This document shows positions 3,980 through 34,599 of a DNA stretch of 64,000 bases, in pieces; the first letter of the stretch is position 1; every line of letters starts with the position of its first letter. A model generated the notes under the pieces. That model was not told where the DNA came from. It ran no database searches and was given only the letters and a program-made list of their open reading frames with translations. The DNA comes from Allacma fusca (taxonomy: Eukaryota > Arthropoda > Collembola > Symphypleona > Sminthuridae), in contig OX359247.1 in NCBI GenBank assembly GCA_947179485.1, forward strand, positions 58,749,131 to 58,813,130. The letters are read 5' to 3'. Made by a program: the position numbers and the translations under genes.

Positions 3980-5339
3980 ACTAGTCATACGGCTGTTTGA
4001 ATTAAGATAGCACTCTTTGGTTTATTTTTCCAGAACAAATTAATTCCACACCTATAATTATTACATACATATATATATGTATAAGATGGATATTTGAAAA
4101 CTGTGAGTGTAAAAGTAGTCATTTCTACTATAGAAATGTTTCTCAGAATCTTCTTACAAACAATAGGGTTGACTTACCAGGTAACTACACCCGATCCGCT
4201 TGAACCTAAATATAGTTGATGTGAGCTTGAAAATTTGCAAAATTTAATATTCAAGTGGTGTTTAAAAGTTTTGAAGTGATAAACTTGTTTATAAGTTATT
4301 AGTACATGAGGAAGCATTGTAAATGATTATAAAACCAAGAAAAAACATTTAAAACGCACAAGTTTGTGCACACACAATTATCAAATTCAGGTAATTATAT
4401 TATACTTTGTGTAAGACAAAATAACTTAACTAGTGTTGTTGAGCTACCTTCAACATATAATTTAAGCCATGTCCGTTTACATTTATATTTTTTATTCTAT
4501 GCTAATGACGCGATGAGAAATATTTTTACCTTTCGTTTGTGAATGTTGTTTATGAATAATTCTGAGTTCACTTTGACCTGTGCGCTTGTTTTCCTTGTGG
4601 TTATTTTTAGGAGCAAGCTACATTTTTACCTGATAAAAAAGGTTTTTGATAAGTTGGCTTCAAGAGAGTCTAGCGAGCGGTTCCACTTTACCTGTACTCT
4701 AAATTATTATTTTATTTTGAACTTAATTAAAGGCTAAGGTTAATTGTACCAAACTAATCCCCAGCCTTATTGCATATTATTTTCCATCCGCAATCTACAG
4801 CTACATACTAACAGTCATTCTACCGTATCACACGCACTTTCAAGTGTAATATTTCGCTTTCCTAACTATTAATCTAATAAGCTTACAATTAATTGCATTA
4901 CAGCTAATTTGGTATTGAAGGGCAAAAATGTTTTCTAATAGTGCAGACACATTTGACACAATTTTATTTATATTAATGGAGTTTTATTATCCAAGTATGT
5001 GTTTTATCTGTTACAAATATATACACAAGTTTGGAACAGATCGTGCTCGTGTTGTAGTACTGTAACTTAATTAGGAAAATATGCCATTGTGCATACATTT
5101 ATGTAAGTGTAGTGCATTCTTGTCACGAGAGACCAACTCGAATGTGCATTTTCATCATATTAGGTAGCAATAATGTTGACAAATTCCCGTTTACAGTACA
5201 AGTGCTGTTTCTTCCCGTCATAGAGTGTGCAACTATATATACACATCTGATTCAAACGTTTTCCCTTTTAGGGGCGTTCTAATTCCGAATTTGTGGTCAA
5301 GGAGCACTCAAGTTTACCTTAGTATTAAGATCAGTATTT
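3980..5339. other. Intergenic stretch, nothing coding supported
   Basis: AT-rich sequence with a short TACATATATATATG run near 4065-4083. Open frames are short and lack splice-site support. The reading frame at 4543-4737 is not convincing. Confidence 0.5.
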
Positions 5340-5347
5340 GATGAGAC

Positions 5348-6290
5348 CAGTGCATCGCATGGGTACATAAAAGCTGTACCTGGACCTGAACCTGGACCCA
5401 AATAGTGGGTACCGGCAAACATCGTACCCATACCCGTACCTGAATAAAAGTACCCATTAAATAAATGTTGGTACCTGGACCTGATTATTTTGCAGTGCGT
5501 ACCTGTACCTGAATTTTACCCATACCCAAAATATACCGAATATATGGACCTGTACCTGAAAAATTTGCCTACGTATCTGTACCCAATCAGGTACTTTAAA
5601 AACAATTACTGTAAACGATTCAACATAATGACATTCGATCATTTACATCACAGCAATTACAAACTAGAAAATTCTGCCTCGTCATAGTTTTTGCAATACT
5701 ACAGATATACATCTTAATGGAACTATAACTTCTATACTCTCTGAGGTATTGCCATCTCCAATTGAATCTTCCACTTCTAGGACATCCTCCATAACCACAA
5801 TATCATTTAACGCCATTTATACTGAATCACAAGTGGAATTTGTAATTACACGTACTTATAGCTGGCACGTTGTGCTAAGCCAACCATCTCTATTGCATAA
5901 CTGTATGCTTTTTCAAAAATGACGACGCACTCATGAAAACACGATGAATATCAAAATAAACCTGTAGGTCGGAGAGAGAGTCACATACTACACTAGATGC
6001 CTCGTAAGATGGATTTCTGTTTGTAAAAGTACCCACATTTTCGGGTATTAATTTGTCAGGTCCAGGTATATTGGAAGCTTGTACCTGTTCCTGCCAGGTA
6101 CAACCCAAAAAATTCCAAGTTTGTACCTGTACCCAACACCTGGTTTTGTACTCAAAATTTGGGTACTTATAGCTAGTACCCATAAAGTACCCCATTCAGT
6201 TTGGGTGCTTAAAGAGAGTACCCATTTCGGACCTGGACCTGTACCTTTACCCAAATACTCAGGTACTACCCGTACCCATGCGATGCACTG
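5348..6290. mobile_element. hAT-like MITE with GGTACC/TACCTG-rich ends (943 bp)
   Basis: Near-perfect terminal inverted repeats start CAGTGCATCGCATGGGTAC at 5348 and end GTACCCATGCGATGCACTG at 6290. The flanks gatgagac (5340-5347) and gtagagac (6291-6298) agree at six of eight positions, consistent with an aged 8-bp hAT target duplication. Both subterminal regions consist of degenerate TACCTGNACC / GGTACCC units (5375-5600 and 6060-6275). These make overlapping open frames on both strands that I do not take as genes. The middle (about 5600-6050) is unique sequence without recognisable transposase. Confidence 0.75.
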
Positions 6291-6312: not shown

Positions 6313-7957
6313 TTATGAGACGTTTTCAATGGTTGGAACGCAGCTATCGTTCCAGGCCGTACCTCCGTTTGATCCATCGCCGGCTTCAAATTGAATGAGA
6401 ATGACTATGTATGTTGTTATTGCCGCAAGAATCTAAACCAAATAAGAAAGAATTTTGAAAAGAATGAGCAAAATATTTTGAAAGTAAACAGTTAGGTTAC
6501 GGATATAACATATGTATAGAGTACAGTGATTTCGCCGTACCGATGTAATCAAATGGCGATCAACCTTGAAGAACTGTCCAGGAGAAATTGTAGGAGCATT
6601 TGTTGATAGTTTTAAGGTCATAGTGCTAACCTAATTACATATACATACGTTAGAGTATTAGATTTTCAAGGGAATTATCTAAAATGCACAAAATACCCCC
6701 GCGGGGGGGGGGGAATAAAAAGTATGGAAATATTTTGCATATATTCTAAATAGTTTTTATGATATAGCTTATTTCTGATACACGAACCTTCATAAAAAGA
6801 TGTTTGGAAATCTTATCAGAATCTATGCAGTACAATTTGTCAAGAACAGCCTTTATAGCTCCGTCCAAAGATGAGCAATGAGAAGTTAAGTAGTAAATCT
6901 GGTATGTGCAAATCATGGCATATAATCCAATCCAAAGAGCATTTATGTATTTCCCAATAAAGAAGTAAAAAATAACAAAAAATATTTGCAAGGAGGTGAT
7001 AAGGACTGAAAATAAAACAATTAAAATTAATTCCAGAGTGAAATGACGATCGAAATCCTTAATTATATCCTCTAAAACGTTATAAGCCTGGAGGCAACTT
7101 CCTATAAGAATTTCTATGATGTTCGAATCTTCCCCAGTCGGTTTCCTCGGTGGAAGTCCGTCAATTTTCTTAACCACATTCTCTAATTCGGTCTTGATGA
7201 TGGAGAGACATGCGGTGTAAATACCCAGGAAGAAGGTAATGCTCAATGTGAGTACAAAATTGCTTGTGTTCGCCAGCATCCATAAACAATTTTGGAGGAG
7301 TTCCAGCGCCGATTTTAAATCCATTGGAAATTTCTGAACTTGCACTGGTATATGTTTCAGAGTAGAACTGATGAATATAAAAAAGTTCAAGGTGATGGGG
7401 TAAAATAGGCCAATAATGATACAGTACTTAATCGAGGATTTAATTTTCTGGAAACACTCATAGTACTTGCACGAATCGGAGCAAAAGTCAAGGTTGGGAT
7501 GAATTTTTGCAAACGTGTCCAATTTCTTTAGGTTATAGTGCCAAAAATTAAGAATTGACCGAGATCTAAATAATGAGATCATCCTAAAGCATGTTGAATT
7601 GAGAGACAAAATTGCTGACAGTAAGGAATAAGCTATTCTTTCTGTTTCACTCCCTGCAGACATTGTGGGTACGTTTAGATAAAAGTTAATATTTCTTTCC
7701 AAAATCATTACCAAAAATATAATAGTCCACCAGAATGATGGAGAGGTTATTCTGAAGGAAAGTTTAAATGTTTTGTTGTATTTTAAAACTAAGGGGAAGT
7801 ACCCAAAGAAGCGAAGACAGTGCAGTAAAACCTTGCTGCTCTGGTACACTTTTTCTTCAATTGAAACCCTGATTGAGGGTATACTCACTGATGTAAAGGC
7901 TGCCTTTCTTTTTTCTAATTCTGTCCTTTTTATTTTAAGAGAAAAAATATTAAACAT
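6313..7957 (-). CDS. Gustatory-receptor-type chemoreceptor, copy 1 (459 residues)
   Basis: Seven-transmembrane ligand-gated chemoreceptor of the insect gustatory receptor superfamily, expected in sensory neuron membranes. Exons, all complement: 6788-7957, 6541-6630, 6313-6432. Donors are AAG|GTTCGT and TCG|GTACGG; acceptors are AATTAG and GTTTAG; all junctions are phase 0. Hydrophobic segments lie near residues 75-88, 108-130, 178-198, 225-252, 308-335, 340-358 and 421-435. The last carries the family signature TYxxxxxQF as TYIVILIQF (427-435). The conserved penultimate exon encodes LKLSTNAPTISPGQFFKVD. It is a tandem paralogue of the gene at 9334-10931, with identical exon lengths for exons 1 (1170 bp) and 2 (90 bp). 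A MITE ends 22 bp beyond the stop codon, and I found no obvious AATAAA nearby, so the 3' end may have been altered. The ligand cannot be inferred. Confidence 0.88.
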
Positions 7958-9268
7958 CTTTCTAACTTTAACCAGGTTCTCGATTATAATTTTACACTGA
8001 TTCGTCTGGACGGTTTTTTATGTTTTTATTTTTGTCAGTAAAAGTTTTTTGACAACTTTTTGTAAAATTCGATCGAACCTTCCCTTTCGTACAAAAATAA
8101 GGAAAACCATTCGAGCTACCTTTCTCTTGTTCAAGATATCGAATTGATTTCACCTGACGAAAGTGTACAAATTGTTTCACTAGGATTGTGCAAAGTAATC
8201 ACTTAACCAGTCATCCATTACGAGTGCCTATTGCTAACAAGCCACAATTTTCTGAGATGGATGAGATAATACAATGTACACAGTGCACTCTTTTCCATAA
8301 AAGCACCCCATAAGGCAGGAGCAAAATTAACATTTATAATATAGACGTGCTTGGTATGGAAAAGAAACTAACATTGGGGTCAGTTGGAACGCGTTCAAGC
8401 ATTTTTAGCCTTGCGCTAAGTACTCAAAAGTTTGCTGGAAAAGTTCTCCTAAATGGGTATATAGCCCTAAATGTAGTGAACTCTTGCAGGTGAAAAATTA
8501 ACAAAATACCTGTCGTGTCCAATTATTGTCCCCCCAAATAGAGATGCCTTGAACACGAAAACGAGCAAAGTACACTTTTCTAGCGAGATCACACTGTAGT
8601 TAGAATAAAATATTCTGTACAATTGTCCTCAAATGATTAATTCAGGTCTGATCAGTGTATGGGAAATAAATGTACTTTTGAAGATGTATTGAATATGTGC
8701 AGTAGTGAAGCAGCAAACGGCTTTAATTTCAGTAATGACTCTACAATACTCCTGATTTTGTAAAGATAAGTTTCGTGTAGTATTTGTTATTATTACAAAC
8801 AACTCCTTGTATTTGTGTGTAAGGCGTTAATAACGGCCTAATTTATTCGTATCAATTGTCATTCTTATTTAGGCATTTATTTTGAAAAAACAAAACGGTA
8901 TGAATAAAATGAAAGACGAAATTAATAATTCGGTTTTCTTATAGTTATTCTTTCTTGAGCTTGTACTGTAAAGAACGAATAAAATTGTTATATGGACATG
9001 AGAAACTAAAAAATCTTATATAAGTAAGTATACCAACCATACGACTTTAATAGCGCAGTTATGTCAGACATTATCCACTGGAGGAAGTACCATTTAAAAG
9101 TATATACATACATATGTACAAGCAATCTTGTACTGCTTAGGGACTACCTGGTTACGAGAACCAAATTCGTCTATCTTATAGGTATCCTGAATTTAGTGAG
9201 GGGTTGTCATTCTGATGGTTTTGAGTCTGGGTCAGTATATTATGTGCGCTATAATTCTTTCGTTCTAT
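7958..9268. other. Intergenic spacer between the two receptor genes
   Basis: About 1.3 kb of AT-rich sequence upstream of receptor copy 1 and downstream of copy 2. No coding exon supported; the promoter of copy 1 should lie here but no clear TATA box or initiator stands out. Confidence 0.5.
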
Positions 9269-9333: not shown

Positions 9334-10931
9334 TTAAAAAGTTGGAGAGCAGCTAACGTTCTCGGCCGTACCTCGGTTTCCCCCATCGCTGGTTTCGAAT
9401 TGAATAAGAATAATTGTGTAAGTTGTAATTGCTGCTATAATCTAAATCAATAAGAAAACATTTTGAAAATAACAGGCAAAACAATTTGAAAGTAATTAAA
9501 CGTATGTGGTGTAATGTGTCCAGTAGATTTGGAGTACCGATGTAATCAAATGACGATCAACCTTGAAGAACTGTCCTGGGGAAATTGTAGGAGCATTCGT
9601 TGATAGTTTTAAGGTGAGGGCGCTAACCTATAAGTAATGCTAAGTATTACATTATTGATTATAAAAGTAATTGTTTGAAATGCACAAAGTATACCTCCAT
9701 AATAATAAAAAAAGACGTTTCCTTGAAAATTTTGAATAGTGTGAGCATATTTATCACGCACCTTCATAAAAAGATGTTTAGAAATCTTATCAGCATCTAT
9801 GGAGTACAATTTTTCAAGGACAGCTTTCAGAGCTCTGTCCAAAGATGAGCAATGAGAAGCTAAGTAGTAAGTTTGAAATACACAAATGTTGACATAAAAT
9901 GTAAATCGAACGGCTTGCAAATATTTCCCAACAGAGAAGTAAAAGGTTACAAAAAATGTTTGCAAAGAGATATTCAGAACTGAAAATAAGAGAGTTAAAA
10001 TTATTTCCAGGCTGAAATGACGATCAAAATCCTTAATTAAATTTTCAAGGACTTTGTAAGCCTGAAGGCAATTTGTTGCCAGAACTTCTGTATCATCCTC
10101 AGTTGTTTCTCTTATCGGGAGAATAAGACAGTCAACTTTCTTAACCACATTCTCCAACTCTGACTCAGTGATGGAGAGACATGCGGTGTAAATTCTGAGG
10201 AAGTACGCGATGCTTAATATAAATAAAAAATTACTTGTATTCCCAAAAATCCAAATACAATTTCCAAGGACACGCGGCAACGCTTTCAAGACACTTAAAA
10301 AATTTTTTTCAAATTGCAACGGTACATAACTCACAGTGAAGTTGACTGCTATAACCGAGTTGTATGCGATGGCGTAAAAAAGGCCAACAATGATACAATA
10401 CTTAATCGAGGATTTAATTTTCTGGAAACAATCATAGTGCTTGCACGAATCGGAGCAAAAGTCAAGATTAGGATGACTTTTTGCAAACGTGTCCAATTTT
10501 TTCAGGTTATTGTCCCAAAAATGAACAATTGACCGAGACCTGAATAGTACTATGATCCTAAAGCAAACTGAATGGAGAGACAAAGTTGCTGTCAATAATG
10601 TATAAGCGATTCTTTCTGTTTCGCTTTCTTCATCTGATGCCCTGTATCCAAACAAAAAATAGTTAATATTTCTCTCCAAAATCAGTGCCAAAAAAATAAC
10701 GGCCCACCAGAATGATGGTGAGGTTATGCTGAAGGAAATTCTAAATGTTTTGTTGTATTTTAAAACTAAGGGGAAATACCCAAAGGTGCGAAGACAGTGC
10801 AACAACAACTTACTGTTTTGATACAATTTTTCTTCTATTGAAACCCTATTCGGGGGCATTTTTACTAAAGTAATATCAGTCTTGCTACCTTCTGTTTTTA
10901 TGGTTTCTGTGTTAAGGGGAATTTGTAACAT
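9334..10931 (-). CDS. Gustatory-receptor-type chemoreceptor, copy 2 (455 residues)
   Basis: Tandem paralogue of the receptor at 6313-7957. Exons, all complement: 9762-10931, 9538-9627, 9334-9441. Donors are AAG|GTGCGT and TCG|GTACTC; acceptors are CTTATAG and GATTTAG; introns are phase 0. The open frame runs on past the first donor, so an unspliced reading would add a false tail after residue 390. The signature TYTIILIQF sits at residues 427-435, the same positions as in copy 1. Blocks shared with copy 1 include RVSIEEK, FGYFPLVLKYNKTF, SETERIAY, FDRHF and SSLD; the first 25 residues and the extracellular-loop-like region near 195-225 differ most. The start ATG at 10931 is the first in frame. 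Ligand unknown. Confidence 0.88.
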
Positions 10932-12909
10932 CTTTCTAACTCCAACCAGACTCTTTATTTACAATCAAATATTTGTCCGGAATTTTATTACTGATAGAAG
11001 AAAAACTCTAGATTTGTGAAGTACTGTATGAATCAATTTCCGTTTTCATACAAATATTAGGATGATCTTTTGAGTCCAACGTGTCTGGGAAAAGGTACTG
11101 GGTTAATTATACCTGAAGAGATTGCAAGCATTTATTGACTAGAGTGTGTAAATTTATCACTTAACCAAATATCCACTGCTTGCGATTAATTAGCCCTGGT
11201 GATGGACTCTTATTGCCTCACTCGAGCTCACTGATGTATATTGTAAAGAAATAAGTTCAAATAAATGAATCCCCCTTCTGACGAGTGTCACATGAAGTAT
11301 ACTTTTGGGGAGTAATAAAAACGCGTGGGAGTGTAGCAAACAATTGGCTTTAATTCCAGGAAGGAAATGTTTACCAAGCCTGACTTTGTAATAATTGACA
11401 CTAATATTTTATAATGCTAAAAGCAAGTTTTAATTTGTAAAAAGCGATACACGTGGAAGTCATGCAGTAGTGCCAAATATTGTCAATACTATTAAGATAA
11501 TTTTAAGAAAACAAAAGTCAATCAATAAATTAAAAAACGATTAGGAAAACATTTTGTTTGATGATTTAAGGAGATTATTGCTCTTCTTGAAAATGAGTTT
11601 ATCACTCTTCTTGAAATGGAGTTTATCACTCTTCTTGAAATGGAGCTTATCACTCTTTTTGAAATGGAGTTTATCACTCTTCTTGAAATGAAGTTTATTG
11701 CTCTTCTTGAAAAGGAGCAAGTTGTTGTACAGGGTTTTCATAACAATCCTCGGTCACCCATAGCTTCTCGAATAATTGTATGATATTTTCATGCTGAACA
11801 ATTAAATGAGGTATTTTTATACGCAGGATTTTATCTCGGATAGGAAAAATATACTTCAAAGCAATTTGTCAGCAATCATTACAAAAATAATGACCATGAA
11901 GCAAACAAAAACTTAAAAAAACTAATTAATTTTTCACATTTAAATTCGTTTCAGTGGAATCCATTGTTTATTACGAATGGAAAGCTTTCGAACAACAACT
12001 GCTTCAGGCTTTCGATCAATCTTCGCGGATATGACCGCAGGAGCTTCTCGAAATCCATTAGTGTCATTTTTCATTTCATCCATCACCTAAATTTTCCCTT
12101 ACTTGTTTTGGTGTCACTGTTAAGCATTTTCTGAATCAGATGATCTAGCATTTAAGTCAAGTTTCCAGGCCAGTCTGAGTGTCCAAAAAAGTTAATAAAT
12201 TTATGGGACACAGAATTTCCTTGGCTGATTTTGCTTTTATGCAAGGGACACGGTAATTATTATTATTTCTAAATTCTATTTATTATTTCTGAATTAAATA
12301 GTGGAGAAAATCACCCATAGCTTCTGCGCTTACTGCTTATGAACCGATTGATTCGAAAAATTTTGGTGGACCCAAATTAATATTTTCAACAAACTTGAAC
12401 AAAGCATTTTTTTCTACAATTGTGTAGCATGATTAGTAACCGGAGAACCTACGGAGGCAAAAGTTACTGAGCAACAGATAGGCAGTACTAAGTATTTGAT
12501 TGAGTATGGAAATGAGAATTGAAATAACCTTATAAAAGTAAATATTGAAACCATAGAACTTTAATAACGAATAGTGATGTAAATACATAAGACGTAATCT
12601 TCTGGAGGCAGTTCCATTTACACGCATGACATTTCTTGGTGATGGCAATAAAAGTTTGCATTAGCCGAGCAAATTTGAGAAGATAAATTCTTGTTTGCTA
12701 TGATTCTTACAAAGAAATTACCTTACTTGAAATGTAATTTATAGTTAATGACGCTAGCCACATGCTAAAAAACTATTCGCAATAACTAAAACGAACAATA
12801 TCCCTTGTGGTATTACATTTTGCAAATCGACGCGAATGGCTACAGTTGCATATATTCACAGAGTTTTGGTCATAACTTGGAAAGTTGGCTAGCTGCTAAA
12901 TCAAGCCCA
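10932..12909. other. Intergenic spacer between receptor copy 2 and the kinase gene
   Basis: AT-rich spacer of 2 kb with one clear minisatellite (11581-11724) and no exon that I can support. Confidence 0.5.
11581..11724. repeat. 24-bp minisatellite, six units
   Basis: Six head-to-tail 24-bp units of the form CTCTTCTTGAAATGGAGTTT plus ATCA, with one to several changes per unit; the last is the most diverged. On the minus strand the unit is in frame as an eight-residue repeat KLHFKKSD inside a 66-codon open frame (11541-11741). There is no sign of splicing, promoter or homology, so I call a DNA repeat rather than a gene. Confidence 0.85.
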
Positions 12910-12951: not shown

Positions 12952-22630
<9,679 letters not shown>

Positions 22631-23011
22631 GATCCAACCGAAGTGTTGGACGATAATTAATTCTTTTGTTAAAAGTTAAGTTGACGCAGTAAGCACCTGA
22701 AGCCACGAAAGTAAAATCCGGTTGTTAATAATTATTGGAAATTAGTTGCATTCAGTCAAAATATTACCCAGGTGGGATGAGATGACTTATACAAATATTG
22801 GAAACCGCGATTCAATCACGACGATGATTTGAGCAACTGTTCTCAAGGTTACTTCCAGTTCTATTCAATGGGAAAATGTAAGGCTTTGATTTCCTAGGTA
22901 TTATGCAAGTCAACACATTATTGACACAAGTATAACTAAATGACAGATGGATTGCGGTTCATCCTTTTGTACAAAATATGAAAACGTGTGAGGTCCCAAA
23001 TGACTCTTAGC

Positions 23012-23017
23012 TATAAA
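23012..23017 (+). promoter_or_regulatory. TATA box of binding-protein gene copy 1
   Basis: TATAAA 44 bp before the ATG, inside a block conserved with copy 2 (TATATAA at 32071); both are followed by cccttgatttgatgaa-like sequence and an A-rich leader. A short 5' UTR is implied. Confidence 0.6.
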
Positions 23018-23060
23018 TCAGACCCTGATTTGATGAAGCATTCAATGTGCAAAAATAACC

Positions 23061-25379
23061 ATGGCAAACTTTCTGGTGGCGGTAGTCGTAATCATTGGCT
23101 TCGCCTCTAATGTGGTAAGGACCATACTTGGGCTGTTAATTTGATAAATCTTCATGTAGTCTATTGTTAATAAACTTTTGCACTTTAAACACAATTTTAG
23201 AAACTAATAGAAGTAAGTATGTTGAGCAAAAGCTTTAATATTTATATTTATCAATAGTAAAATCATTAAATTACAAAAACTTGATTGATTTTAAAGCATG
23301 TCAAATATTCCCTGCTCCTTTTTGTACATACAGCTTGACCTAATATTAAGAGAACATACTTAGATCTGCCTGAATTGACATGCAAATTGCTTTAAAATAC
23401 AGGAGCTCCTTTACGTATCCCCTGGGGCAAGTCCAAATAAAACCGACAATTTTGGTGTAGAGACAAAGTCATTGGATCAACTGTATGCCGATGCACAAAA
23501 GGAAGGTTGCAAGGCAATCATTTACGCCGGAGGAGATGTCCCCGGCCAGCAAGATTATTACAAGAATCTTTTTGAACAAAAGTTCAAAGGCTGCACCCTG
23601 GAAATGATTGTTGATTACAGTAAATTCCATGATGCACGTATCAACTATCAATTCCAAAATGGACCGCTTATTCCTGATGTGGTTCAACTTCAAACACTGC
23701 AAGATTTTCCCATTTGGAAGAACCAAAGTCGTTTCATGCGCTACAAACCCAAGGATTGGGATATGATAATGAAGGAATACAAGGACCCTGACGGATACTT
23801 CTTGCCAATATTCTTTTCTCACTTCACAAACTGCGTGAACAATAACCTAATGAAGGATCCTAAGACTTGGCCAACGAATATCAAAGATTATCTGAAGCCT
23901 GAACTGAAGGGTCATATTGTCCTCACTTACCCCAATGACGATGACGCGGTTTTGTTTCTCTTCAAACTGTTCATTGATAAATATGGCTGGGGATTTGTTC
24001 AAGAGCTAAATGATAAGCAGAATGTGACTTGGGTTCGTGGAACAGAGGTATGAAATTTTTTATTACATGTGAGGATTAAAGCGCATACTAAATGTAATTA
24101 AAAAGCACATATTCACACCCGCACTCTATAAAAATGAAAATGCCTTTTAGATTAGCTTAAATGCTGTATATTTAGATATAAGTAGCCTTTGTGCGTATAC
24201 ATAAGTTATATTCGTTTCTGTGAACCTGGAAAGGATCAGTATGATAATTACCTGGTCCATTTAAGTTTCAAAAATGGGTAGCTGGACTCGTTGAGATACC
24301 TTTACAAATAGCTAGAAATCTGAACCCGTTTTCCGCTTCACCAGCTAATATACCCGGACCAATTCCTACGTCATAGTTATACTACTTACACCTAAATGTC
24401 AACACAGCCAGGGGTGTAAATATCAAACGCTTGTAGTTAGTTCTGTAGATCTGCAGTTCGCGCTTCGTTTAACGAAATGTAAACCAGTAATATTAAATTG
24501 ATTTATAATCTTTAATCCCTAGTTAAAGTTTTACGGGTTGAATTATATTTTTATAACTTGTCCTCCCTGATAAGAGCACGAAATTTCTTCTCTATGAAGT
24601 TCAATACTTGCATACAACTTTAGAGCTAAATGTAGATATAGTTGATTGTTTTACTAATTGTGAGTGTATGATCAGGATGAATGACACACTGAAGACAACT
24701 CAAAATCTGCTGGCACTTTCATTAAAATAGATTCAAAGTGAAATTCTATTTGAATGAATAGTCTGTAAGAGCGCTATTAAAAGGAGAACTTCACATTATC
24801 ACAAGTGTAATGTTACAAGGAGAAATTTTGAAATGTAAATATGTCGACGTGTCGAAACATTTCCCTAAGAAAATAGTTCTCTTTAAATTTAAATGCTACA
24901 GGGGATATATTTTGTGTGATGTTGTTTAATTTTAGGAACCCAGTGTAGCATTGGCTGAAAATCGTACCTGGGCAGCTATTGCAGCAGGATGCGATTTTAA
25001 CAACCCACCGGGCGTTTCAACCTTTGTCCTTCCAAAATCAGATCCCTTTATGACGTGGGCTCAGACCGCTGCGATTTTCAAAGATGCAAAAAATCCCGCT
25101 ACTGCCAAGCTCTACCTCAACTGGATCATATCTGCAGACGTTCAGCGAAATAATTTAGGGTCCTGGTCCATCCGCACAGATGTCCCACCACCAAAACCTT
25201 ACGGTCCCTTGTCGTCCTACAAAAGCCAAACGAATCCAATGGATTTTAAGACTTTTATGGAAAATCGAGCTGCGGTTGAGGATCTTAAAACTAAAATGAT
25301 GTTAATTATTGGTGAGCCCAAAGGTCCAGCATCTCCTGGAAACCTTGGGATGTATCCTACGAAAGCATTACCTCATTAA
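23061..25379 (+). CDS. Secreted PBP2-type (Fe3+ ABC-type) substrate-binding-like protein, copy 1 (380 residues)
   Basis: Exons 23061-23114, 23403-24047 and 24936-25379, all joined in phase 0 (donors GTAAGG and GTATGA). Exon 1 encodes a signal peptide (MANFLVAVVVIIGFASNV). The mature protein resembles the periplasmic-binding-protein type 2 fold of bacterial Fe3+/spermidine-type ABC importers and their secreted fungal relatives: IIYAGGD near 57-63, DYYKNLFEQKF (69-79), DVVQLQTLQDFPIW (110-123), LTYPNDDDAVLF (192-203), TWVRGT (227-232) and a C-terminal KLYLNWIIS helix. No permease or ATPase partner is present, so it is not a working importer; binding a metal or small solute outside the cell is plausible. 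Several N-glycosylation sequons occur. A possible 12-nt microexon (23201-23212, KLIE) fits the frame. Introns, TATA box and AATAAA show a host-adapted gene. A fungal or bacterial origin is inference from family distribution. Confidence 0.85.
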
Positions 25380-25406
25380 ACATTGTATTGTGTTGTGCCC
25401 GGTTAC

Positions 25407-25412
25407 AATAAA
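25407..25412 (+). terminator. Polyadenylation signal of binding-protein gene copy 1
   Basis: AATAAA 28 nt beyond the stop codon, conserved in position and context (GTTACAATAAAA) in copy 2. Confidence 0.7.
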
Positions 25413-25420
25413 ATTTGAAT

Positions 25421-26550
25421 ATTTAATGATTTATTCAAAATAATATGAATAAAGCATTTGATTTGCCCTAATTAAAAATGCTGCAGTTATCTTTTAAAAC
25501 CAGCATCGTTTCAGAATTTTTGAAAGATTTTCTTACCATCCTGTACATTAACGGGGAGTTTTTTTGAGTTGGAATAGATCGAAATATCACTCATCCTGTA
25601 TATTATCTTCATTTAATACATTTCAGTATATAATTAATCATAAAATAAATAGTATCAAAAGAGGCTGTTTTGAATAATAATAAGAATGTATCGTAGTTAA
25701 AATTACGCAGATTATACGTACTAAGCGTTTCCCTGTAAGAATTAAAATAATGACAAATAACAATGAAATGAATTAGGTCTTAATTTTCATGCATATAACT
25801 TTAGGTCCAGGCAATCACATTTGCTACTTCTTGTAAACATTTGAGTTACTATACTGCGTCCAAGTTACTTCATTCAATTCTAGTGCTCCGAAGACCGACA
25901 TTCATATTTACAAAGATCTTGAAGCGTTATAATGCTCAAAATGCCCAACTTGCCGGCCCACATCTACAAAAGTATCCAGAAACTGGGCATGCTGGAAGCC
26001 ATTTTCATTGTAAGTTGGATGGGCAAAACCTTTAAGAGGTTTTAGATGAAGTGGCAATAATTCCTGGTTACAAGACCAACCATATATTTTCCCGTTTGGG
26101 TTAAACCCCGAGGTCTTAACAAAATTTGAGATGACAAACTCGTAATCAGTGAATAACAGGCGGTTTGTCGTGACCAGACATGTGAATAAAATACCTTGAC
26201 GGGACTATATGAATACACTATACGGAGAATAAATCGAGCAAAATGAGGAAGACGGTATGGTACATCTCCATCGTTTTAATTGTGCTAGAGCTCTTGGTTT
26301 TCAAAAGATACGATTAGTAGCTGAAAAACTTCTGACAGATTGATAATCTTGCTGCGAGAGATTGTATATAACCATTCTTGTTACTTTCCATTCGTCCATA
26401 ATATTATTAACTTCATCATCCAAATTAGTATGAGATAAAGACAACCAAGAGGCACTTGCAACCCTAATTCCAACTTTACAGCAATTAATAGGAAATTACT
26501 CTTATGACAATATTTCTGATTTTACCTACCAAATAATTCATTTGTACTTC
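25421..26550. other. Spacer between binding-protein gene 1 and the long-TIR transposon
   Basis: AT-rich, no exon, repeat or signal that I can support. Confidence 0.5.
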
Positions 26551-27005
26551 CAAGGTAAGATTTTGGGATGGTACACGCGGATTGAAACAAAGCACAGCTC
26601 ATGTTTTAGTACTTCACTAGTATGTTTCAAAATTCGTGTAACTCGGGTGCATTTTGCCCCGTTCGCTTAGGACACGTCATCAAAGTTTCAAAATTTAATA
26701 CGATACCTCAGGTGGGGGGACCTGTCTTTTCAAAAAAAGTAAATGTTAAATCCCATAAGGATTTTCAAGTTTTGTAAGTCCATGAAATTTTGATCTTTAC
26801 TATTTCGAGCAAATTCAAGTTTTATCGTGCGCATTTATATATCCTTCAACAAAATTCCCCCAAAAAGTAATCCCCCATCATGGCGCACCCGTATGTATGT
26901 AGTCGATATGATATATTCACTCCATATTTAATCACTTATCTACATACGCATAAACTAAACTTGAGTTTTGTCCTAGGATGTACATATGTACAACCAGGGT
27001 TACTC

Positions 27006-27365
27006 CAGGGGTCGGATTTTTGTGGGAAGACGGGAAGATTCTTCCCAGGGAAAAAATACTCAACAGGGAAATTCTCAGGGATAATGGATATTTTTTTGTA
27101 AACAGGGATTTTTAAATTCGTTGATCTTTTTTTGGCAGGGATTTTCAAATTTGTTCAGGGAATTGTTTTTCAGGGAAATTTGTTAGGCAAACAGGATTTT
27201 TCGATTGGTTTACTTTATTTGGAAGAGATTTGACGTATTAGAGGGTAATTATTTTTGCGAACAGGGATTATGAAAATCGTTGAGGACCTCCCTGCAGGGA
27301 TATTTGAATCAGCAGGGAAATTCAAGAGTAATCTTCCACGGGGATTTACAAAAATCCGACCCCTC
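27006..27365. mobile_element. hAT-like MITE nested in the long-TIR transposon (360 bp)
   Basis: Inverted ends AGGGGTCGGATTTTT (27007-27021) and AAAAATCCGACCCCT (27350-27364), of the CAGGGGTCGG type common in hAT elements. The inside is made of degenerate CAGGGA / TTTTTG units. No clean 8-bp target duplication is visible, so it is either old or its flanks have changed. It begins just where the homology to the right arm of the host transposon stops. Confidence 0.7.
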
Positions 27366-28229
27366 TTCTAATGAAAAAGGCTTTATTTCTGCCCACCTAA
27401 AAATGCCCTGAAAATGGCAAAAACGCCGAAAATTTTGGTCATGTTGGCCAAAACATGTACACTATTATTGTCCGGAGCATCTTGAAATAATTGAACCCAT
27501 ACAGTTTTAGAAAACTTTATTGTTAAGTTTCTAAAAAGTCAGTAGGTATAATTGATTAATAATGAGGAGTGGCTAAAAATTATGTTTCTAATGATTTAAA
27601 AAGACTTGGTTTTGCGATCAGTTGGCGCAGTGCCTGTGTAAATTCCGAATTTTGATCACGACTATATTTGAATATTTTTTTAAAAACTATATAAATTTTA
27701 TAAAAAATTCAAACGTTGGAGATTATGTAGTAAATTTTAGATCGACTTTAAAAATTGAATTTTATCAGCCCAAGTAAACCTAGGAGTCAAAAATGTGACA
27801 ATACAAAAATTGCATATAGATGATGACTAGTTTTGCAGCTCATAAACTAGTGTTCTTAACAGTTATTTAATCTTTGTGTGTTATATTTTTGCAAAAATAT
27901 GTTTGCATGCAGTAGGCATTATTTGCAAACGAATTATTACGCCAAAAAAAATAAAAAATAATATTATTATATTTCTCATAAAGTTTCCTATTTCAACTTG
28001 TAACATACTGCTTTGAGATTTAGTAGATCCATAGCTAAACTTACATATTGACACAATTGGAGCGAATATGTCAAAAATGCTTACCTCAGGATGCATATAC
28101 CAAAAGTGCCATTGATGGCCATAATTTCATCACATGAAAATGCCTAAAATGATAAGGCATTTTGGGCAGGCATAATGACAAAATTGTGAAGGCATTTTCA
28201 ATTGCCCAAACCTGCGTACAACATCCATA

Positions 28230-28545
28230 ATCAAATTTTCTCCAAAGGTAATCCCTCCTGCATGGATATTAATGTTTTCTTCCGTCAAGAATTCTTCTAG
28301 TATAGCTTGTTTATCTCTGATGTGCATACGTACAGCCGGCATAATTTGCCGCCCCCCAAAATGTCATTAAATTTTCTCCAAATGCAATCCCATAAGGGAT
28401 TCATTGGGGAGGAAAGCACTAATATAATTACATGTTGGCTGTACATATGCACATCAGAGATAAACCATCTATGCTGGAGGAATTCTTTGAGAAGTAAAAC
28501 TGTGCACTACATGGTGGAGGGATTACCTACGAATAAAATTTGACG
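28230..28545. repeat. Fold-back inverted repeat inside the transposon
   Basis: Arms 28230-28337 and 28437-28545 are inverted copies with several mismatches (shared GGTAATCCCTCC, TTTATCTCTGATGTGCAT and GTACAGCC), around a loop of about 99 bp. It may be an internal structure of the transposon or another nested MITE; flanking target duplications are not evident. Confidence 0.75.
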
Positions 28546-29017
28546 ATCTTTGTATGGGAAGTTAATTATTAATGTTGGACATACGTGTATCCTAGGACAA
28601 AACTCAAGTTTAGTTTGTGCGTATGTAGATAAGTGATTAAATATGGAGTGAATATATCATATCGACTACATACATACGGGTGCGCCATGATGGGGGATTA
28701 CTTTTTAAGGGAATTTTGTTGAAGGATATATAAATGTGCACGATAAAACTTGAATTTGCTCGAAATAGTAAAGATAAAAATTTCATGGACTTACAAAACT
28801 TGAAAATCCTTATGGGATTTAACATTGAATTTTTTTGAAAAGACAGGTCCCCCCACCTGAGGTATCGTATTAAATTTTGAAACTTTGATGACGTGTCCTA
28901 AGCGAACGGGGCAAAATGCACCCGAGTTACACGAATTTTGAAACGTACTAGGGGAGTACTAAAACATGAGCTGTGCTTTGTTTCAATCCGCGTGTATCAT
29001 CCCAAAGTCTTACCTTG

Positions 29018-31650
29018 TTAGTGAATAGGATACGGATGAAAATACGACTCTGCGATCAATGTATATGTATCTTTTTGTTCACATATGTTGCAAGAACAAT
29101 ATCTTGCAAGAGATATAGTATAAATAATCATTGATTTGGCAGGACAACCCCATATGAGTTCACGCATTTTTACCGTAATACATAATTCTATTTTGTAAAG
29201 AAATTCCGTGTTCTTGTATGACTTCGATTTCTTCGACAAAATCAAGAAGAAATTCAAGAATTGTTTAGCATACTTTCTCCCCAGTCGCTCAAAACTATAT
29301 GGGATTCCTATGGGATGCAAGTTCTGTGAGAAAATGTAGCAGAAATCCCATCAGCCATATAGGATCTTGTAGAAATCATTCAGCTTGTCAGAAAATTGCA
29401 CGCGATTCTTATAAGTTAGTGAATCATAAGAAGTTTTTAGAAAAATCCTATAAGTTGGGTGCCGCATATCCTGCAAGTTGGAGCACCATAGGACACTTTC
29501 AGAAAAATCCTGTAGTTTGGAGATACCATAGGACATTTTTAGAAAAATCTTGTACTTGCTTTGACAAGGATTTTGCGCTCCTCACCGTTTGTACACGACA
29601 TAGAATATAACCGCCAAATTTGCATTACTTCAACAACAGTTCTCGGGTGTATCCCGATCCCAGCGATAGAGGACCTGCTACAATCGCTCGTTATCCTACC
29701 TTGTATTTGCTAAATTCGCTGTTGCTGCTGATTTTTGCCAGAGGAAAGTCATCCGAAATAATACTTTTTACAATTAATTCAAACAAAAAGGTACATAGAT
29801 CAGTTGGATCAAAGAATTTCCTAATCAAAACATAACTTCTGGGCTCCCTGTTACCAACTCTCTGGAAAATTGATCTTCCGCCTTCATTGAAGACTAGCCT
29901 TCGAAGGCTGGATATGTCTGCATTGTTTACAACGATTCGAATTTCATATAGAAATGTTTGTGTTGTTTCGGATAAATATCGACAAGGCTCGAGTTGGAAG
30001 CCCTTTAGTTAGAACTTTTTAATTTCTACATTAGCAAAAACCTAAACCCAGAAGTATAATGTTTGCGGAAAATAGTGAGGATTAGAATCACCCATTATTT
30101 AAAACTGATCATGATCCAACGTGTTATGAATGCATTACAAATTACGTGTATGTTATTTGGGGAAATAATAAGTACGTACATTGACGTGTTGACGATATTT
30201 TTCCTGCTCATTTTCGAAAACAACCGAATTAATCAATCAAAAAATGTCTGAACGGAACTTATTGCATTTTTTTATTTAGACGAACATTGACGCTAAATTG
30301 TAGAATATTTTACGAACTTCTCTTGGTATCAAACGGATCGACATGCTCCTCTTGCGATTTAAGGGTGACTCCTAATCTGGACTAGGCTTTCAGTTCAATA
30401 ATAGCTCGGTGCGCCCAGTAGAAACTTATAACAAAGTACAATGATATTCAATTACCAGTCTACAATGTTTGCGGGAGTGATACTTTGGGGGAAAATACCC
30501 AGAAAATGAAACATCTCTGACTTCACGTCACTATTTTGTTTTGGCTTTGGAGCAAGTATCGGGCACGTCTGATCTCCTTCAGGTCTCGATCCAACTCTGT
30601 CCTCCTTTTCTTCCGAAATCGTTCGTATCTCCCTGAGTCCATCCAAGGCTCCTTGTCTCCCATTGCTCAGCTATTTTCTTTCCTTTTGGCTACCTCATCT
30701 GGGATTGGCTGCTCCCCTTCTTGACGTTCTTATTGCTCCAGTTTGTCAACCATCTTCACCCTAACGATCGTGCTGACAGATCTCAGCTGCTTCGATCGTC
30801 CTGACTCCAAATTCATGAGTCACGTTTGGTAACGGTGGGAATTTTGAAATTACTTCTGGCGTTACTTGCACCCGGCCTGGCTTGTAGCCTCTGGCAATCT
30901 CGTTATGTTAGTCGTTGCTGAAACCTTATTTAGCTCCTATCCAGCTCCAACTATGACTCCATGTTTTCTCGAGGACAACGATCTAAATTAGAATTAAACA
31001 CTCACTAGAACTATTCATTTCAGGGTGTCCAATACGTGAAAAATCGTCTGTTATCAGTACTTCGTGGTAAGTCAACAAGGGATATGAAGCGCTACTGTGT
31101 GATGTGACAGCACAAGGTACTAACTGTAAAACATGTATATACATATACAAAAGCGATCGTTAACAAATGGGCATTAAAAGATTTGTATGTACTGGGGAGC
31201 TTAAAACGTTTACCTCATCTATACCTTTATTTACACTATTATATTTATATCGATTTAACGAGCAATTAAATTCACACATATTGCATCACTAATTGTAAGC
31301 CTTTACAAACTTGAATCATGCATACATACATCTGTATATGAGTTCATGCGATATCTGCCGGTTCATGGAAAAGAAAACGTAAACGACAAATCCGACTAAG
31401 ATGGCACAAGCTTTATCTCTCATTTTCTGTACATGTGTAATTTACATGTGTTTATATGTGACCTCGATTAATTTTCTGAGATCAAAAGGATGAGCTGATT
31501 TCCTCAAAAAACAATCGACTTGTTACTTTGTATCTAATATACCCCTACAAAAAATGTGATTTGCCTGGTACCCTAAGTCAGTTAGCCAGAGCAGACAACC
31601 CGACATTCGCAATAGTGACTTTCAGCTTCGTCTGGTCCCTAAAAGTCAAA
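29018..31650. other. Spacer between the transposon and duplication unit 2
   Basis: No gene supported. Contains degenerate short tandem repeats near 29410-29560. A stretch of more balanced base composition at about 30530-30900 has coding-like texture on the minus strand (REIRTISEEKEDRVGSRPEG) but no recognisable domain and interrupted frames; it could be a decayed repeat. Confidence 0.4.
29410..29560. repeat. Degenerate tandem repeat of about 40 bp
   Basis: Units contain ACCATAGGACA, then TTTNAGAAAAATCCTGTA, then GTTTGGAG. Two and a half fairly clear units (about 29485-29560) are preceded by more diverged ones (AGAAAAATCCTATAAGTTGG). Confidence 0.6.
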
Positions 31651-32070
31651 CCAATGACACCTTTGAATGATATTAAATATTTTGTTAGATGTTGGATTGA
31701 CGCAATAAATAAATAAAAACACTGAAGTAAAATCTAAATATTAATTATTACTAACATTTAGTTGCATTCACTCAAAATGTTACACAGGTGTGATCCGATG
31801 ATTTATACAAATATTTGTAACCACGATCGAATTATGTTGAAGATTTATGCAGCTGTCCCCAAGGTTACTTCCAGTTGCTATTCATTGCAAATCTTGGATC
31901 CGGGTGAGGTCTTTGAGCAATGTAAAGAAATAAAAATTTCATAAAGCTTTGAATTCGTGGATATTTGCAAAACAGAATATATATTGATATAAATATAAAT
32001 GAAGGGTGGTTTGTGGCTCATCATGTCATCTAAAATTTAAACAACATGTGAGCTACACAAATTACTTTGG

Positions 32071-32077
32071 TATATAA
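32071..32077 (+). promoter_or_regulatory. TATA box of binding-protein gene copy 2
   Basis: TATATAA 41 bp before the ATG, within a block conserved with copy 1. Confidence 0.55.
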
Positions 32078-32117
32078 GCCCTTGATTTGATGAAACTTTG
32101 ACAGTGCAAAAGTAATC

Positions 32118-34537
32118 ATGGCGAAAATTCTGTTAGCAGTGGTCGTAATCATTGGCTTCGTCTCTCTCGCGGTAAGAACCATACATGACCATTAATTTTA
32201 TAAATCGTTCTGGGAATTTAATAATTTGTTTTGTCTTACAACTTTGTAAACCAACTTAGTAGCATTTATGTGTGGCAAACATATTCTTTATTATTTTTCA
32301 TTGGCAAAATTGATAAATTATGGGTATAAAACACCTCATTTATTCACTTTTATCCTTTTAAAACACAGCTTACGCAGGTACTAAGAATATATGCTACGTG
32401 CTGGCAGTATTAAAATATAATATATTAAAATATCCATGCTGTACAGGAGCTCAGTTATGCACACCATGGAGGAGGATACCATGGAGGAGGATACCATGGA
32501 GGAGGATACCATGGAGAAGGATACCACGGTGAAGGACACCATGGAGGAGGATGCAATGGAGAAGGACACCAAGGAGGATCATCCACTGGAGGAACAACAC
32601 CTGGAGCTCCGCCCACTAGCAGTTCTAGTGTAGAGACCAAATCGATGGACCAACTATACGCCGATGCCAAAAAGGAAGGATGCAAGGCAATAGTTTACGC
32701 CGGTGGAGATGTCCCCGGCCAGCAAGATTATTACAAGAATCTTTTTGAACAAAAGTTCAAAGGCTGCACCCTGGAAATGATTGTTGATTACAGTAAATTC
32801 CATGATGCACGCATCAACTATCAATTACAAAATAACAAACTTATCCCTGATGTGGTTCAACTTCAAACACTGCAAGACTTTCCCATTTGGAAGAACCAAA
32901 ATCGTTTAATGAGCTACAAACCCAAGGATTGGGATGTGATAGTGAAGGAATACAAGGACCCTGACGGATACTTCTTGCCAATATTCTTTTCTCACTTCAC
33001 AAACTGCGTGAACAATAAGCTTATGAAGGATCCCAAAACTTGGCCAACGAATATTAAAGATTATCTGAAGCCTGAACTGAAGGGTCATATTGTCCTCACT
33101 TACCCCAATGACGATGACGCGGTTTTGTTTCTCTTCAAACTGTTCATTGATAAATACGGCTGGGGATTTTTTGAAGAGCTAAATGCCAAGCAGAATGTGA
33201 CTTGGGTTCGTGGAACAGAGGTATGAAATTGTTTATTGGTTGTGATGATTTAAACGGATATTAAACTTCATTAAAAAGCACATACTGCCACCCAGTCACC
33301 CATATTCTCCCTTTAAAACGATTCGGTTTGCTTTAATGCACATTACGTGTAAGTAGTCTTTGTGCGTATAAAATTATATCCGTATAAGTGAAATCTAAAT
33401 GTATATTTCCCTTAAGTTTAACAAAACCTGGATTTGTATCGGTAAAATCAGTATGATACATATTTACCGTTCCCTTTAAGTTTAAAATTGGGCCCCTGGG
33501 TTAATTATATTCCTTTACAAAGAACTTGAAATTTCGACCTGTTGAGCTAATACACACCGGGCCTTTCCCACATCACAGTCAAACTTTACACATAGTTGTG
33601 AACACAAGCAGGGATGTAAATATCAAATGCTTGCAGTTAGTTCTGTGGATAAAAACACTGACAAGGACAGTTCACGCTCAGTATATATTTTAGGAATCCG
33701 ATTGAAAGATACAAATATTTGTGAAAACCTTCTAATTGGGAAAAGGTGAAAATGACAAGTATTCTTTCTCCAGTTAAGATGCATGTGTTAAACACGGATT
33801 GTTTTACTAATTGTGAGTCTGTGATCGGGATGAATGACATACTGAAGACTACTCAAAATCTTCTGGCACTTTCATAGAAATAGTTACAACATGAAATTAT
33901 AAAAATATAATGGGTAGTCTATAAGAACACTCTTTAAAATGGAGCACATGACATGAGCACTGTTGTAATGTTACAAGGCGAAATGTTGTGTGAAATGTAA
34001 TTGTGTCAACATATTTTTCACTAAGAAAATAGTTCTCTTAACTCTAATAATTGTTACAGGGGATATATTTTGTATCATGTTGTTTAATTTCAGGAACCCA
34101 GTGTAGCATTGGCTGAAAATCGTACCTGGGCAGCTATTGCAGCAGGATGCGATTTTAACAACCCACCAGGCGTTTCAACCTTTGTCCTTCCAAAATCAGA
34201 TCCCTTTATGACGTGGGCTCAGACCGCTGCGATTTTCAAAGATGCAAAAAATCCCGCTACTGCCAAGCTCTACCTCAACTGGATCATATCTGCAGACGTT
34301 CAGCGAAATAATTTAGGGTCCTGGTCCATCCGCACAGATGTCCCACCACCAAAACCTTACGGTCCCTTGTCGTCCTACAAAAGCCAAACGAATCCAATGG
34401 ATTTTAAGACTTTTATGGAAAATCGAGCTGCGGTTGAGGATCTTAAAACTAAAATGATGTTAATTATTGGTGAGCCCAAAGGTCCAGCATCTCCTGGAAA
34501 CCTTGGGATGTATCCAACGAAAGCATTACCTCATTAA
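32118..34537 (+). CDS. Secreted PBP2-type substrate-binding-like protein with His/Gly-rich N-terminal repeat, copy 2 (423 residues)
   Basis: Exons 32118-32171 (signal peptide MAKILLAVVVIIGFVSLA), 32447-33220 and 34094-34537; introns are phase 0. The second exon starts GAG CTC as in copy 1, but where copy 1 has about 20 ordinary residues, copy 2 has seven five-residue units of HGGGY type (32465-32569), then a Ser/Thr/Gly/Pro linker (GGTTPGAPPTSSS) leading into VETKSMDQLY. The binding-protein core is as in copy 1 (LTYPNDDDAVLF, TWVRGT), with about 15 substitutions in the central exon and no amino-acid change in the last. About nine histidines in the repeat could bind Cu, Zn, Ni or Fe, and Gly/Tyr/His repeats also occur in cuticle and antimicrobial proteins; neither role is shown. 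A possible 9-nt microexon (32369-32377, LTQ) fits the frame. Confidence 0.85.
32465..32569 (+). repeat. In-frame 15-bp minisatellite encoding HGGGY units
   Basis: Seven units of CATGGAGGAGGATAC, the first three identical and the later ones changing to HGEGY, HGEGH, HGGGC and NGEGH. The homogeneous 5' side points to recent unit expansion there. Alternative frames through the same repeat give MEED or Pro/Trp-rich shadows that should be ignored. Confidence 0.9.
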
Positions 34538-34564
34538 CCATTGCATTGTATTGTATCCAGTTAC

Positions 34565-34570
34565 AATAAA
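34565..34570 (+). terminator. Polyadenylation signal of binding-protein gene copy 2
   Basis: AATAAA 28 nt beyond the stop codon, at the same place as in copy 1. Confidence 0.7.
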
Positions 34571-34599
34571 AATTGAACCCTGAATGAACATGAGCCTTA

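What the first reader, a model, noticed from the sequence alone, without database searches (positions are those of the whole stretch)
22630..34580. Tandem, intron-bearing, secreted substrate-binding-protein genes of probable fungal or bacterial origin
Both genes encode a signal peptide plus a complete PBP2-type core with YAGGD, LTYPNDDDAVLF and WVRGT motifs, which I associate with bacterial Fe3+-type ABC importers and secreted fungal relatives, not with animals. Introns, TATA boxes and AATAAA signals argue against contamination. A free-standing extracellular solute- or metal-binding protein in an arthropod would be a notable recruited function.
Basis: partly seen in the sequence, partly recalled or inferred. 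Interest (0 to 1): 0.85.

Follow-up and report, generated by a model that had tools for sequence, protein, structure and literature searches.

The report
Springtail copies of microbial iron-binding protein
A globular springtail carries several intact-looking, intron-containing copies of a secreted metal-binding protein that its ancestors most likely picked up from a microbe; the family and its presence in springtails are already published, so this is a new, well-anchored member rather than a new kind of thing.

Summary
Two three-exon genes, A (23061-25379, 380 aa) and B (32118-34537, 423 aa), encode a hydrophobic leader plus a complete substrate-binding-protein domain. The closest solved structure is IbpS of Dickeya (6hhb, E 3.5e-105 for A; 48% identity), prototype of the secreted iron/copper-binding Ibp family; all eight published iron-cavity residues are kept. 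The window is chromosome 3 of the springtail Allacma fusca (contig length equals the published scaffold N50 to the base). That genome holds at least a third intact gene (C) and a truncated copy (D) 58 Mb away on the same chromosome, so contamination is very unlikely. A, B and C form one clade (99/99) among bacterial Ibps. Ibp genes in the springtail Folsomia candida, and their horizontal origin, are already in print (Liu 2019; Vieira 2021): a new member of a known kind. Bacterial versus fungal donor could not be decided, since no fungal or other animal sequence was available. New details: springtail-only cysteines, a His/Gly-rich tail on B with no second match in the genome, and near-identity of A and B largely limited to exons 2 and 3. 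Best functional reading, inferred from IbpS: an extracellular low-affinity Fe/Cu buffer that damps Fenton chemistry.

The parts
23012..23018 (+). TATA-like box (TATAAAT) 49 bases upstream of the ATG of gene A
   Evidence: pattern match only
23061..23114 (+). Gene A exon 1: hydrophobic leader of 18 aa (signal peptide by hydropathy)
23403..24047 (+). Gene A exon 2: first part of the binding-protein domain; iron-site residues in YSKFH, QLQT, NDDDA; ends just after WVRGT
24936..25379 (+). Gene A exon 3: rest of the domain including the M334 equivalent, dimer-helix residues and C-terminal tail; stop codon
25407..25412 (+). AATAAA after gene A
   Evidence: pattern match only
32071..32077 (+). TATA-like match nearest to the ATG of gene B (two more at 31978 and 31988)
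   Evidence: pattern match only
32118..32171 (+). Gene B exon 1: hydrophobic leader of 18 aa
32447..33220 (+). Gene B exon 2: His/Gly-rich N-terminal stretch, then the same domain part as gene A exon 2
32463..32578 (+). 15-bp tandem repeat (7.7 copies) coding HGGGY/HGEGY-type units, in gene B only; no second match found in the genome
34094..34537 (+). Gene B exon 3, 2 differences in 444 nt from gene A exon 3, both silent
34565..34570 (+). AATAAA after gene B
   Evidence: pattern match only

Best explanation
Genes A and B are tandem members of a small Ibp (IbpS-like) gene family of the springtail Allacma fusca, descended from one microbial gene gained by horizontal transfer before A/B and C split, and since fitted with a leader exon, introns and cysteines. 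The products are most likely secreted, dimeric Venus-flytrap proteins that hold Fe3+/Cu2+ loosely in the conserved acidic cavity outside cells (gut lumen, saliva or body fluid), which lowers free redox-active metal and so Fenton damage during feeding or defence. Shown here: gene structure, family membership by sequence, conserved metal-site and most dimer residues, a single springtail clade, place in the chromosome. Inferred from IbpS: metal binding, dimer, antioxidant effect. Guessed: tissue and ecological role.
For: Match to IbpS 6hhb/6fjl over the whole domain, including the N-terminal helix region and the C-terminal tail. All eight residues of the IbpS iron cavity (S86, K87, Q110, T111, D191-193, M334) are identical in 3 of 3 springtail genes, against 22 of 31 other full rows, IbpS included (site named in Liu et al., read). 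Dimer residues R223, R337, E341 and E353 are kept in 3 of 3; R344 is K in A and B. One springtail clade, 99/99, and 99/99 with the four longest other rows left out. Intron 2 lies at the same codon (RGT[E/Q]|EP), phase 0, in A, B and C; intron 1 lies at the end of the leader in all three, also phase 0, though the leaders are too unlike for an exact match. A-B core dN 0.022 against dS 0.112, so the protein is constrained. Liu et al. report Fe3+/Cu2+ binding and protection from H2O2 (abstract and introduction) for IbpS.
Against: No expression, splicing or binding data. IbpS binds copper weakly (Kd 11 uM), its iron is poorly coordinated, and its authors allow another ligand in vivo. A and B lost the Arg at 344. 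The springtail cysteines at 157 and 245, the latter next to the pocket-facing S244 of IbpS, could mean a changed ligand. The donor is not resolved (AU p 0.398 for grouping with the enterobacterial rows; rhizobial grouping supported only 28/0), and published trees do not exclude an older animal origin with losses.
Confidence: 0.6

Rival explanations
1. Same gene family and transfer, but the donor was a fungus (or the gene came from another arthropod that had it from a fungus), as in one scenario of Vieira et al. 2021.
For: Vieira et al. name a bacterial donor for nematodes and a fungal donor for arthropods as one of two scenarios they hold equally likely (passages read). Many fungal Ibp genes have introns.
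Against: Liu et al. [quoted passage not shown] The closest relatives found here are rhizobial and enterobacterial at 53-57% identity, but no fungal row could be compared.
Confidence: 0.3
2. [quoted passage not shown]
For: Vieira et al. enforced arthropod plus nematode monophyly and the AU test did not reject it.
Against: It needs very many losses; Liu et al. read the nematode and springtail genes as two separate bacterial transfers. Not testable here without other animal sequences.
Confidence: 0.08
3. The proteins bind an organic or phosphorus ligand and act as a scavenger or carrier, not a metal buffer.
For: Weak NCBIfam matches to phnS2 (phosphonate), PotD (polyamine) and SfuA (thiamine) models, all far below cut-off. 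The IbpS authors leave open another ligand.
Against: The iron-cavity residues are kept 8 of 8 in 3 of 3 genes. The classical pocket is partly closed by the C-terminal tail in IbpS, and that tail is kept.
Confidence: 0.2
4. The proteins are saliva or gut secretions aimed at food organisms (damping plant or microbial oxidative bursts, or keeping iron from microbes), as suspected for the nematode gland-expressed homologue.
For: A Radopholus homologue is expressed in oesophageal glands; IbpS is secreted and contributes to plant infection.
Against: No tissue data for any springtail; feeding of A. fusca was not examined here.
Confidence: 0.3
5. Assembly chimera or microbial contamination.
For: The right flank is not anchored by a named gene: 0 of 9 downstream ORFs scanned had a Pfam hit.
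Against: Introns in three paralogues, intron 2 at the same codon; GC 0.35-0.375 in the four 2-kb steps that hold the genes against 0.32-0.41 across the window; a 7tm_7 chemoreceptor ORF and a protein-kinase exon upstream, 2 of 5 ORFs with hits; paralogues at 0.59 Mb of the same 66 Mb chromosome; 80-fold HiFi plus Hi-C assembly.
Confidence: 0.01

Closest known systems
IbpS of Dickeya dadantii (6hhb, 6fjl) and the Ibp family (Liu et al. 2019, PMC6813330)
   Same: Whole-domain homology, iron-site residues, C-terminal tail, most dimer residues, free-standing gene with a leader.
   Different: Springtail genes have introns; four domain cysteines in A and B and two in C at columns where none of 31 other full rows has one; R344K in A/B; a His/Gly-rich stretch in B.
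Ibp genes of the springtail Folsomia candida (six copies, Liu et al. 2019; also Vieira et al. 2021)
   Same: Same family, same animal class, several copies after transfer.
   Different: Another order (A. fusca is a symphypleonan).
SBP_bac_6 proteins of plant-parasitic nematodes (Heterodera avenae, Radopholus similis)
   Same: Same Pfam family, animal host, suspected microbial origin; introns reported for Radopholus (5).
   Different: Published work treats them as possibly separate transfers; no sequence compared here.
FutA/FbpA-type ferric ABC importer binding proteins
   Same: Class II/cluster D fold, by homology to IbpS.
   Different: IbpS lacks the FutA iron ligands (Liu et al.) and the springtail proteins have no Tyr at the aligned pocket-loop columns 241-245; FutA itself was not aligned here.

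Membership tests
Ibp (IbpS-like) family | Whole-domain homology to IbpS | tested here: met
   6hhb E=3.5e-105 (A) and 1.2e-121 (C); A 47.8%, B 48.4%, C 53.5% identity over 339-340 columns
Ibp (IbpS-like) family | Iron cavity S86, K87, Q110, T111, D191-D193, M334 | tested here: met
   8 of 8 in A, B and C
Ibp (IbpS-like) family | Extra N-terminal helix and C-terminal tail (352-372) | tested here: met
   Alignments run from chain residue 29 to 370 (A) and 33 to 372 (C); sequence only, no structural model
Ibp (IbpS-like) family | Dimer residues R223, R337, E341, R344, E353 | tested here: inconclusive
   Five of five in C; four of five in A and B, where R344 is K; dimer itself not testable
Ibp (IbpS-like) family | Secretion signal | tested here: inconclusive
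   Strongly hydrophobic first 18-19 residues encoded by exon 1 in A, B and C; no predictor run
Ibp (IbpS-like) family | Binds Fe3+ and Cu2+, protects from H2O2 | not testable with these tools
   Needs protein
Pfam SBP_bac_6 (PF13343) | Score over the curated cut-off of 24.6 bits | tested here: met
   A exon 2 26.3, B exon 2 25.0, spliced A 25.4; C exon 2 is below the cut-off at 21.4
FutA/FbpA-type ferric importer protein | Iron-ligand Tyr pair on the pocket helix (Y241/Y242 in FutA1) | tested here: inconclusive
   At IbpS columns 241-245 A and B read IAAGC and C reads PAVAC, no Tyr, but FutA1 was not aligned here; that these columns replace its Tyr helix rests on Liu et al.

The most novel reading that the evidence does not exclude
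After transfer, springtails rebuilt the microbial Ibp into a different metal protein: cysteine pairs fit it for the animal secretory route or add a thiol site at the ligand cleft, and gene B carries a newly grown His/Gly repeat arm that makes it a multi-site metal sponge, while conversion centred on exons 2 and 3 keeps A and B alike in the core domain.
Probability: 0.3. Interest if true: 0.5.

Novelty: new member of a known kind. Interest (0 to 1): 0.35.

Why it matters
It extends the published springtail Ibp transfer from Folsomia (an isotomid; its order, Entomobryomorpha, is recalled) to a symphypleonan with a chromosome-scale genome, which suggests, if orthology is confirmed, that the gene was gained early in springtails and kept. 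Three intact copies, with A and B shown to be constrained, shared intron places and gained cysteines give a concrete set for testing how a bacterial-type periplasmic protein is refitted for animal secretion. It does not open a new kind of system.

Tried and rejected
Contamination or chimera: set aside on introns, paralogues, GC, upstream genes and assembly evidence. ABC importer component: set aside because the closest family is Ibp, which its authors separate from FutA-type importers; not tested against FutA itself. Viral origin: the scan of viral contigs gave 4 pattern matches and no relative. Naming the donor: two trees and one AU test, unresolved. Expression evidence: no tool offers it. 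Structure prediction was not run: the spliced protein is not a letter-for-letter frame of the window, and a solved homologue exists; so the disulfide pairing is untested.

Searches for prior reports: (all ten allowed). None of the listings names a paper on Ibp genes of Allacma; two searches listed 25 of 99 and 12 of 78 papers and 10 of 11, only open-licence PMC papers are held, and most listed papers were not opened. Papers seen: PMC6813330 (parts 1-3 of 9, discussion, and passages), PMC8601627, PMC10427803, PMC5490193 and PMC13389597 by passages only; the rest as listings.

Full report
What is there. Gene A (23061-25379) has three exons (23061-23114, 23403-24047, 24936-25379) giving 380 aa; gene B (32118-34537) has three exons (32118-32171, 32447-33220, 34094-34537) giving 423 aa. 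The four introns are GT-AG, phase 0. Exon 1 codes a hydrophobic leader. TATA-like matches and AATAAA signals are present, as pattern matches only.

Where it is. The window is C10:58749131-58813130 of a 392,743,791-base genome in 91 contigs. C10 is 66,084,411 bases long, exactly the scaffold N50 printed for the Allacma fusca assembly qeAllFusc8.1, whose chromosome 3 is 66.08 Mb (PMC10427803, passages). The published total is 392,786,974 bp in 95 scaffolds, slightly more than held here. I take the species as settled. Of five upstream ORFs scanned, one on the minus strand matches a chemoreceptor family (7tm_7, 28.6 bits) and one a protein kinase; three have no hit. Ten more ORFs, nine of them downstream, gave no Pfam hit.

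How many. Searches of the whole genome with exon 2, exon 3, the Pfam model and protein C found A, B, a third gene C (588,603-590,023 of C10) and a truncated copy D (match at 599,040-599,549). C gives an open 390-aa protein with intron 2 at the same codon as in A and B and intron 1 at the end of its leader, both phase 0. D keeps only the end of exon 2 and exon 3. Counts from this tool are lower bounds.

What it is. By sequence the closest solved proteins are two entries of IbpS of Dickeya dadantii: 6hhb at E=3.5e-105 for A and 1.2e-121 for C; the next PDB match of A has E=0.014. Liu et al. 2019 (PMC6813330; parts 1-3 of 9, the discussion and passages read) describe the Ibp family: secreted, SBP fold of class II/cluster D, dimeric, binding Fe3+ and Cu2+, with an iron in a cavity of S86, K87, Q110, T111, D191-D193 and M334, and protection from H2O2. 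They found it in bacteria, fungi, oomycetes, the springtail Folsomia candida (six copies) and the nematode Heterodera avenae, and argue for several horizontal transfers. On my alignment all eight cavity residues are kept in A, B and C (3 of 3) and in 22 of 31 other full rows, IbpS included; of the nine others five differ only by M334L, two (L028, L041) by two residues, and two (L042, L043) are distant binding proteins that keep only S86.

Relatives. 19 of 72,556 plasmid records hold a match to C, the best eight at 53-56% identity over 88-91% of it in Enterobacter, Agrobacterium and Rhizobium. The one scan of genome contigs confirmed 17 of 386 pattern matches as relatives, up to 57% identity; two peptide patterns were used, which favours near relatives. 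In samples of whole genomes matches at E <= 1e-20 are rare: 6 of 398 (phylum of G001), 2 of 396 (phylum of G007), 2 of 197 (order of G002), 7 of 199 (order of G001), 1 of 198 (phylum of G006), the centre genome counted. Two of the 6 and two of the 7 are the same 26-27% matches (G207, G224), that is, more distant binding proteins. G001, G002, G006 and G007 are the genomes of a Mesorhizobium, Enterobacter soli, an Aquimarina and an Actinomadura. Among the 9 listed features round the Enterobacter plasmid gene there is no ABC permease or ATPase (the plasmid gene tables are incomplete). The Agrobacterium gene has branched-chain ABC genes on the same strand ending 2.8 kb upstream, with two other listed genes between.

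Tree. With 34 rows the three springtail proteins are one clade (99/99) beside a group of 20 rows, 18 of them named enterobacterial or rhizobial and two unnamed; the fork holding both has 85/93. With the four longest other rows left out (30 rows) the clade stays (99/99) but its sister is unresolved: grouping with the enterobacterial rows is not rejected (AU p 0.398), and grouping with the rhizobial rows has support 28/0. The program warns of long branches, Afus_C among them, and of unusual letter make-up in A and B. No fungal, nematode or other springtail row could be included. So descent from a microbial Ibp is supported; donor type is not decided. Liu et al. favour bacteria for the animal genes. 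Vieira et al. 2021 (PMC8601627, passages) find homologues in F. candida, two Bradysia species and several plant-parasitic nematodes; [quoted passage not shown]

What changed in the springtail. Cysteines at IbpS positions 157 and 245 occur in A, B and C, and at 49 and 77 in A and B only; none of the 31 other full rows has a cysteine at these four columns, and only L050 (2), L041 (1) and L043 (1) have any cysteine at all in the sequences aligned. Added pairs suggest disulfides formed in the animal secretory route; the pairing is my inference. Position 245 is next to S244, which points into the pocket in IbpS, so a thiol ligand site is possible. B has a 61-residue stretch between leader exon and domain (18 in A) with 9 His, 23 Gly and 5 Tyr, much of it from a 15-bp repeat; a search of the genome with it found no second match.

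A and B history. Identity is 71% in the 450 bases upstream, 78% in exon 1, 63% in intron 1, 91% in exon 2, 70% in intron 2, 99.5% in exon 3 and 47% in the 600 bases downstream. Exon 3 has 2 of 75 fourfold sites changed against 9 of 63 in exon 2 (Fisher p 0.023, a contrast chosen after seeing the data). Silent sites in exon 3 (dS 0.020) are far less changed than the intron beside it, so selection on the protein alone does not explain it; conversion centred on exons 2 and 3 fits. The limit is not exact: the last 40 bases of intron 2 are 36 of 40 alike and the first 40 after the stop 33 of 40, and exon 1 is not homogenised. Core dN and dS are 0.022 and 0.112, so A and B are constrained; C was not tested.

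How it likely works. A secreted dimer with an acidic cavity would hold Fe3+ or Cu2+ reversibly outside cells and so limit Fenton radicals. Shown: sequence features. Inferred: binding and dimerisation, from IbpS. Guessed: gut, salivary or body-fluid use. The tail of B would add metal-binding capacity if it binds at all.

Verdict. A real, open, chromosome-anchored member of a published, horizontally spread family in a second springtail lineage. Interest is moderate to low because the essential surprise is in print; the cysteines, the tail of B and the exon-centred conversion are the new details.

Noticed in passing
window 26546-26994 and 28574-29022: 449-nt inverted repeats, 96% complementary, 1579 nt apart, between genes A and B: looks like a DNA transposon with long terminal inverted repeats.
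   Followed up: partly
window 23403-25379 against 32447-34537: Near-identity of tandem paralogues centred on exons 2 and 3 (exon 3 99.5%, introns 63-70%), suggesting exon-centred gene conversion.
   Followed up: partly
L012 about 4900-5549 (C10 near 599 kb): Truncated fourth Ibp copy about 9 kb from gene C: end of exon 2 plus exon 3 only; left end judged by eye.
   Followed up: yes
window 6746-8017 and 9609-10958, minus strand: Two receptor-like ORFs that look alike by eye; the first matches 7tm_7 chemosensory receptor, the second has no Pfam hit.
   Followed up: partly
window 28231-28342 and 28432-28543: Second, weaker inverted repeat (76%, 112 nt) inside the transposon-like element.
   Followed up: no
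L028 (Aquimarina): This Bacteroidota relative has F for K87 and T for D191 in the iron cavity and lies on a long branch.
   Followed up: no
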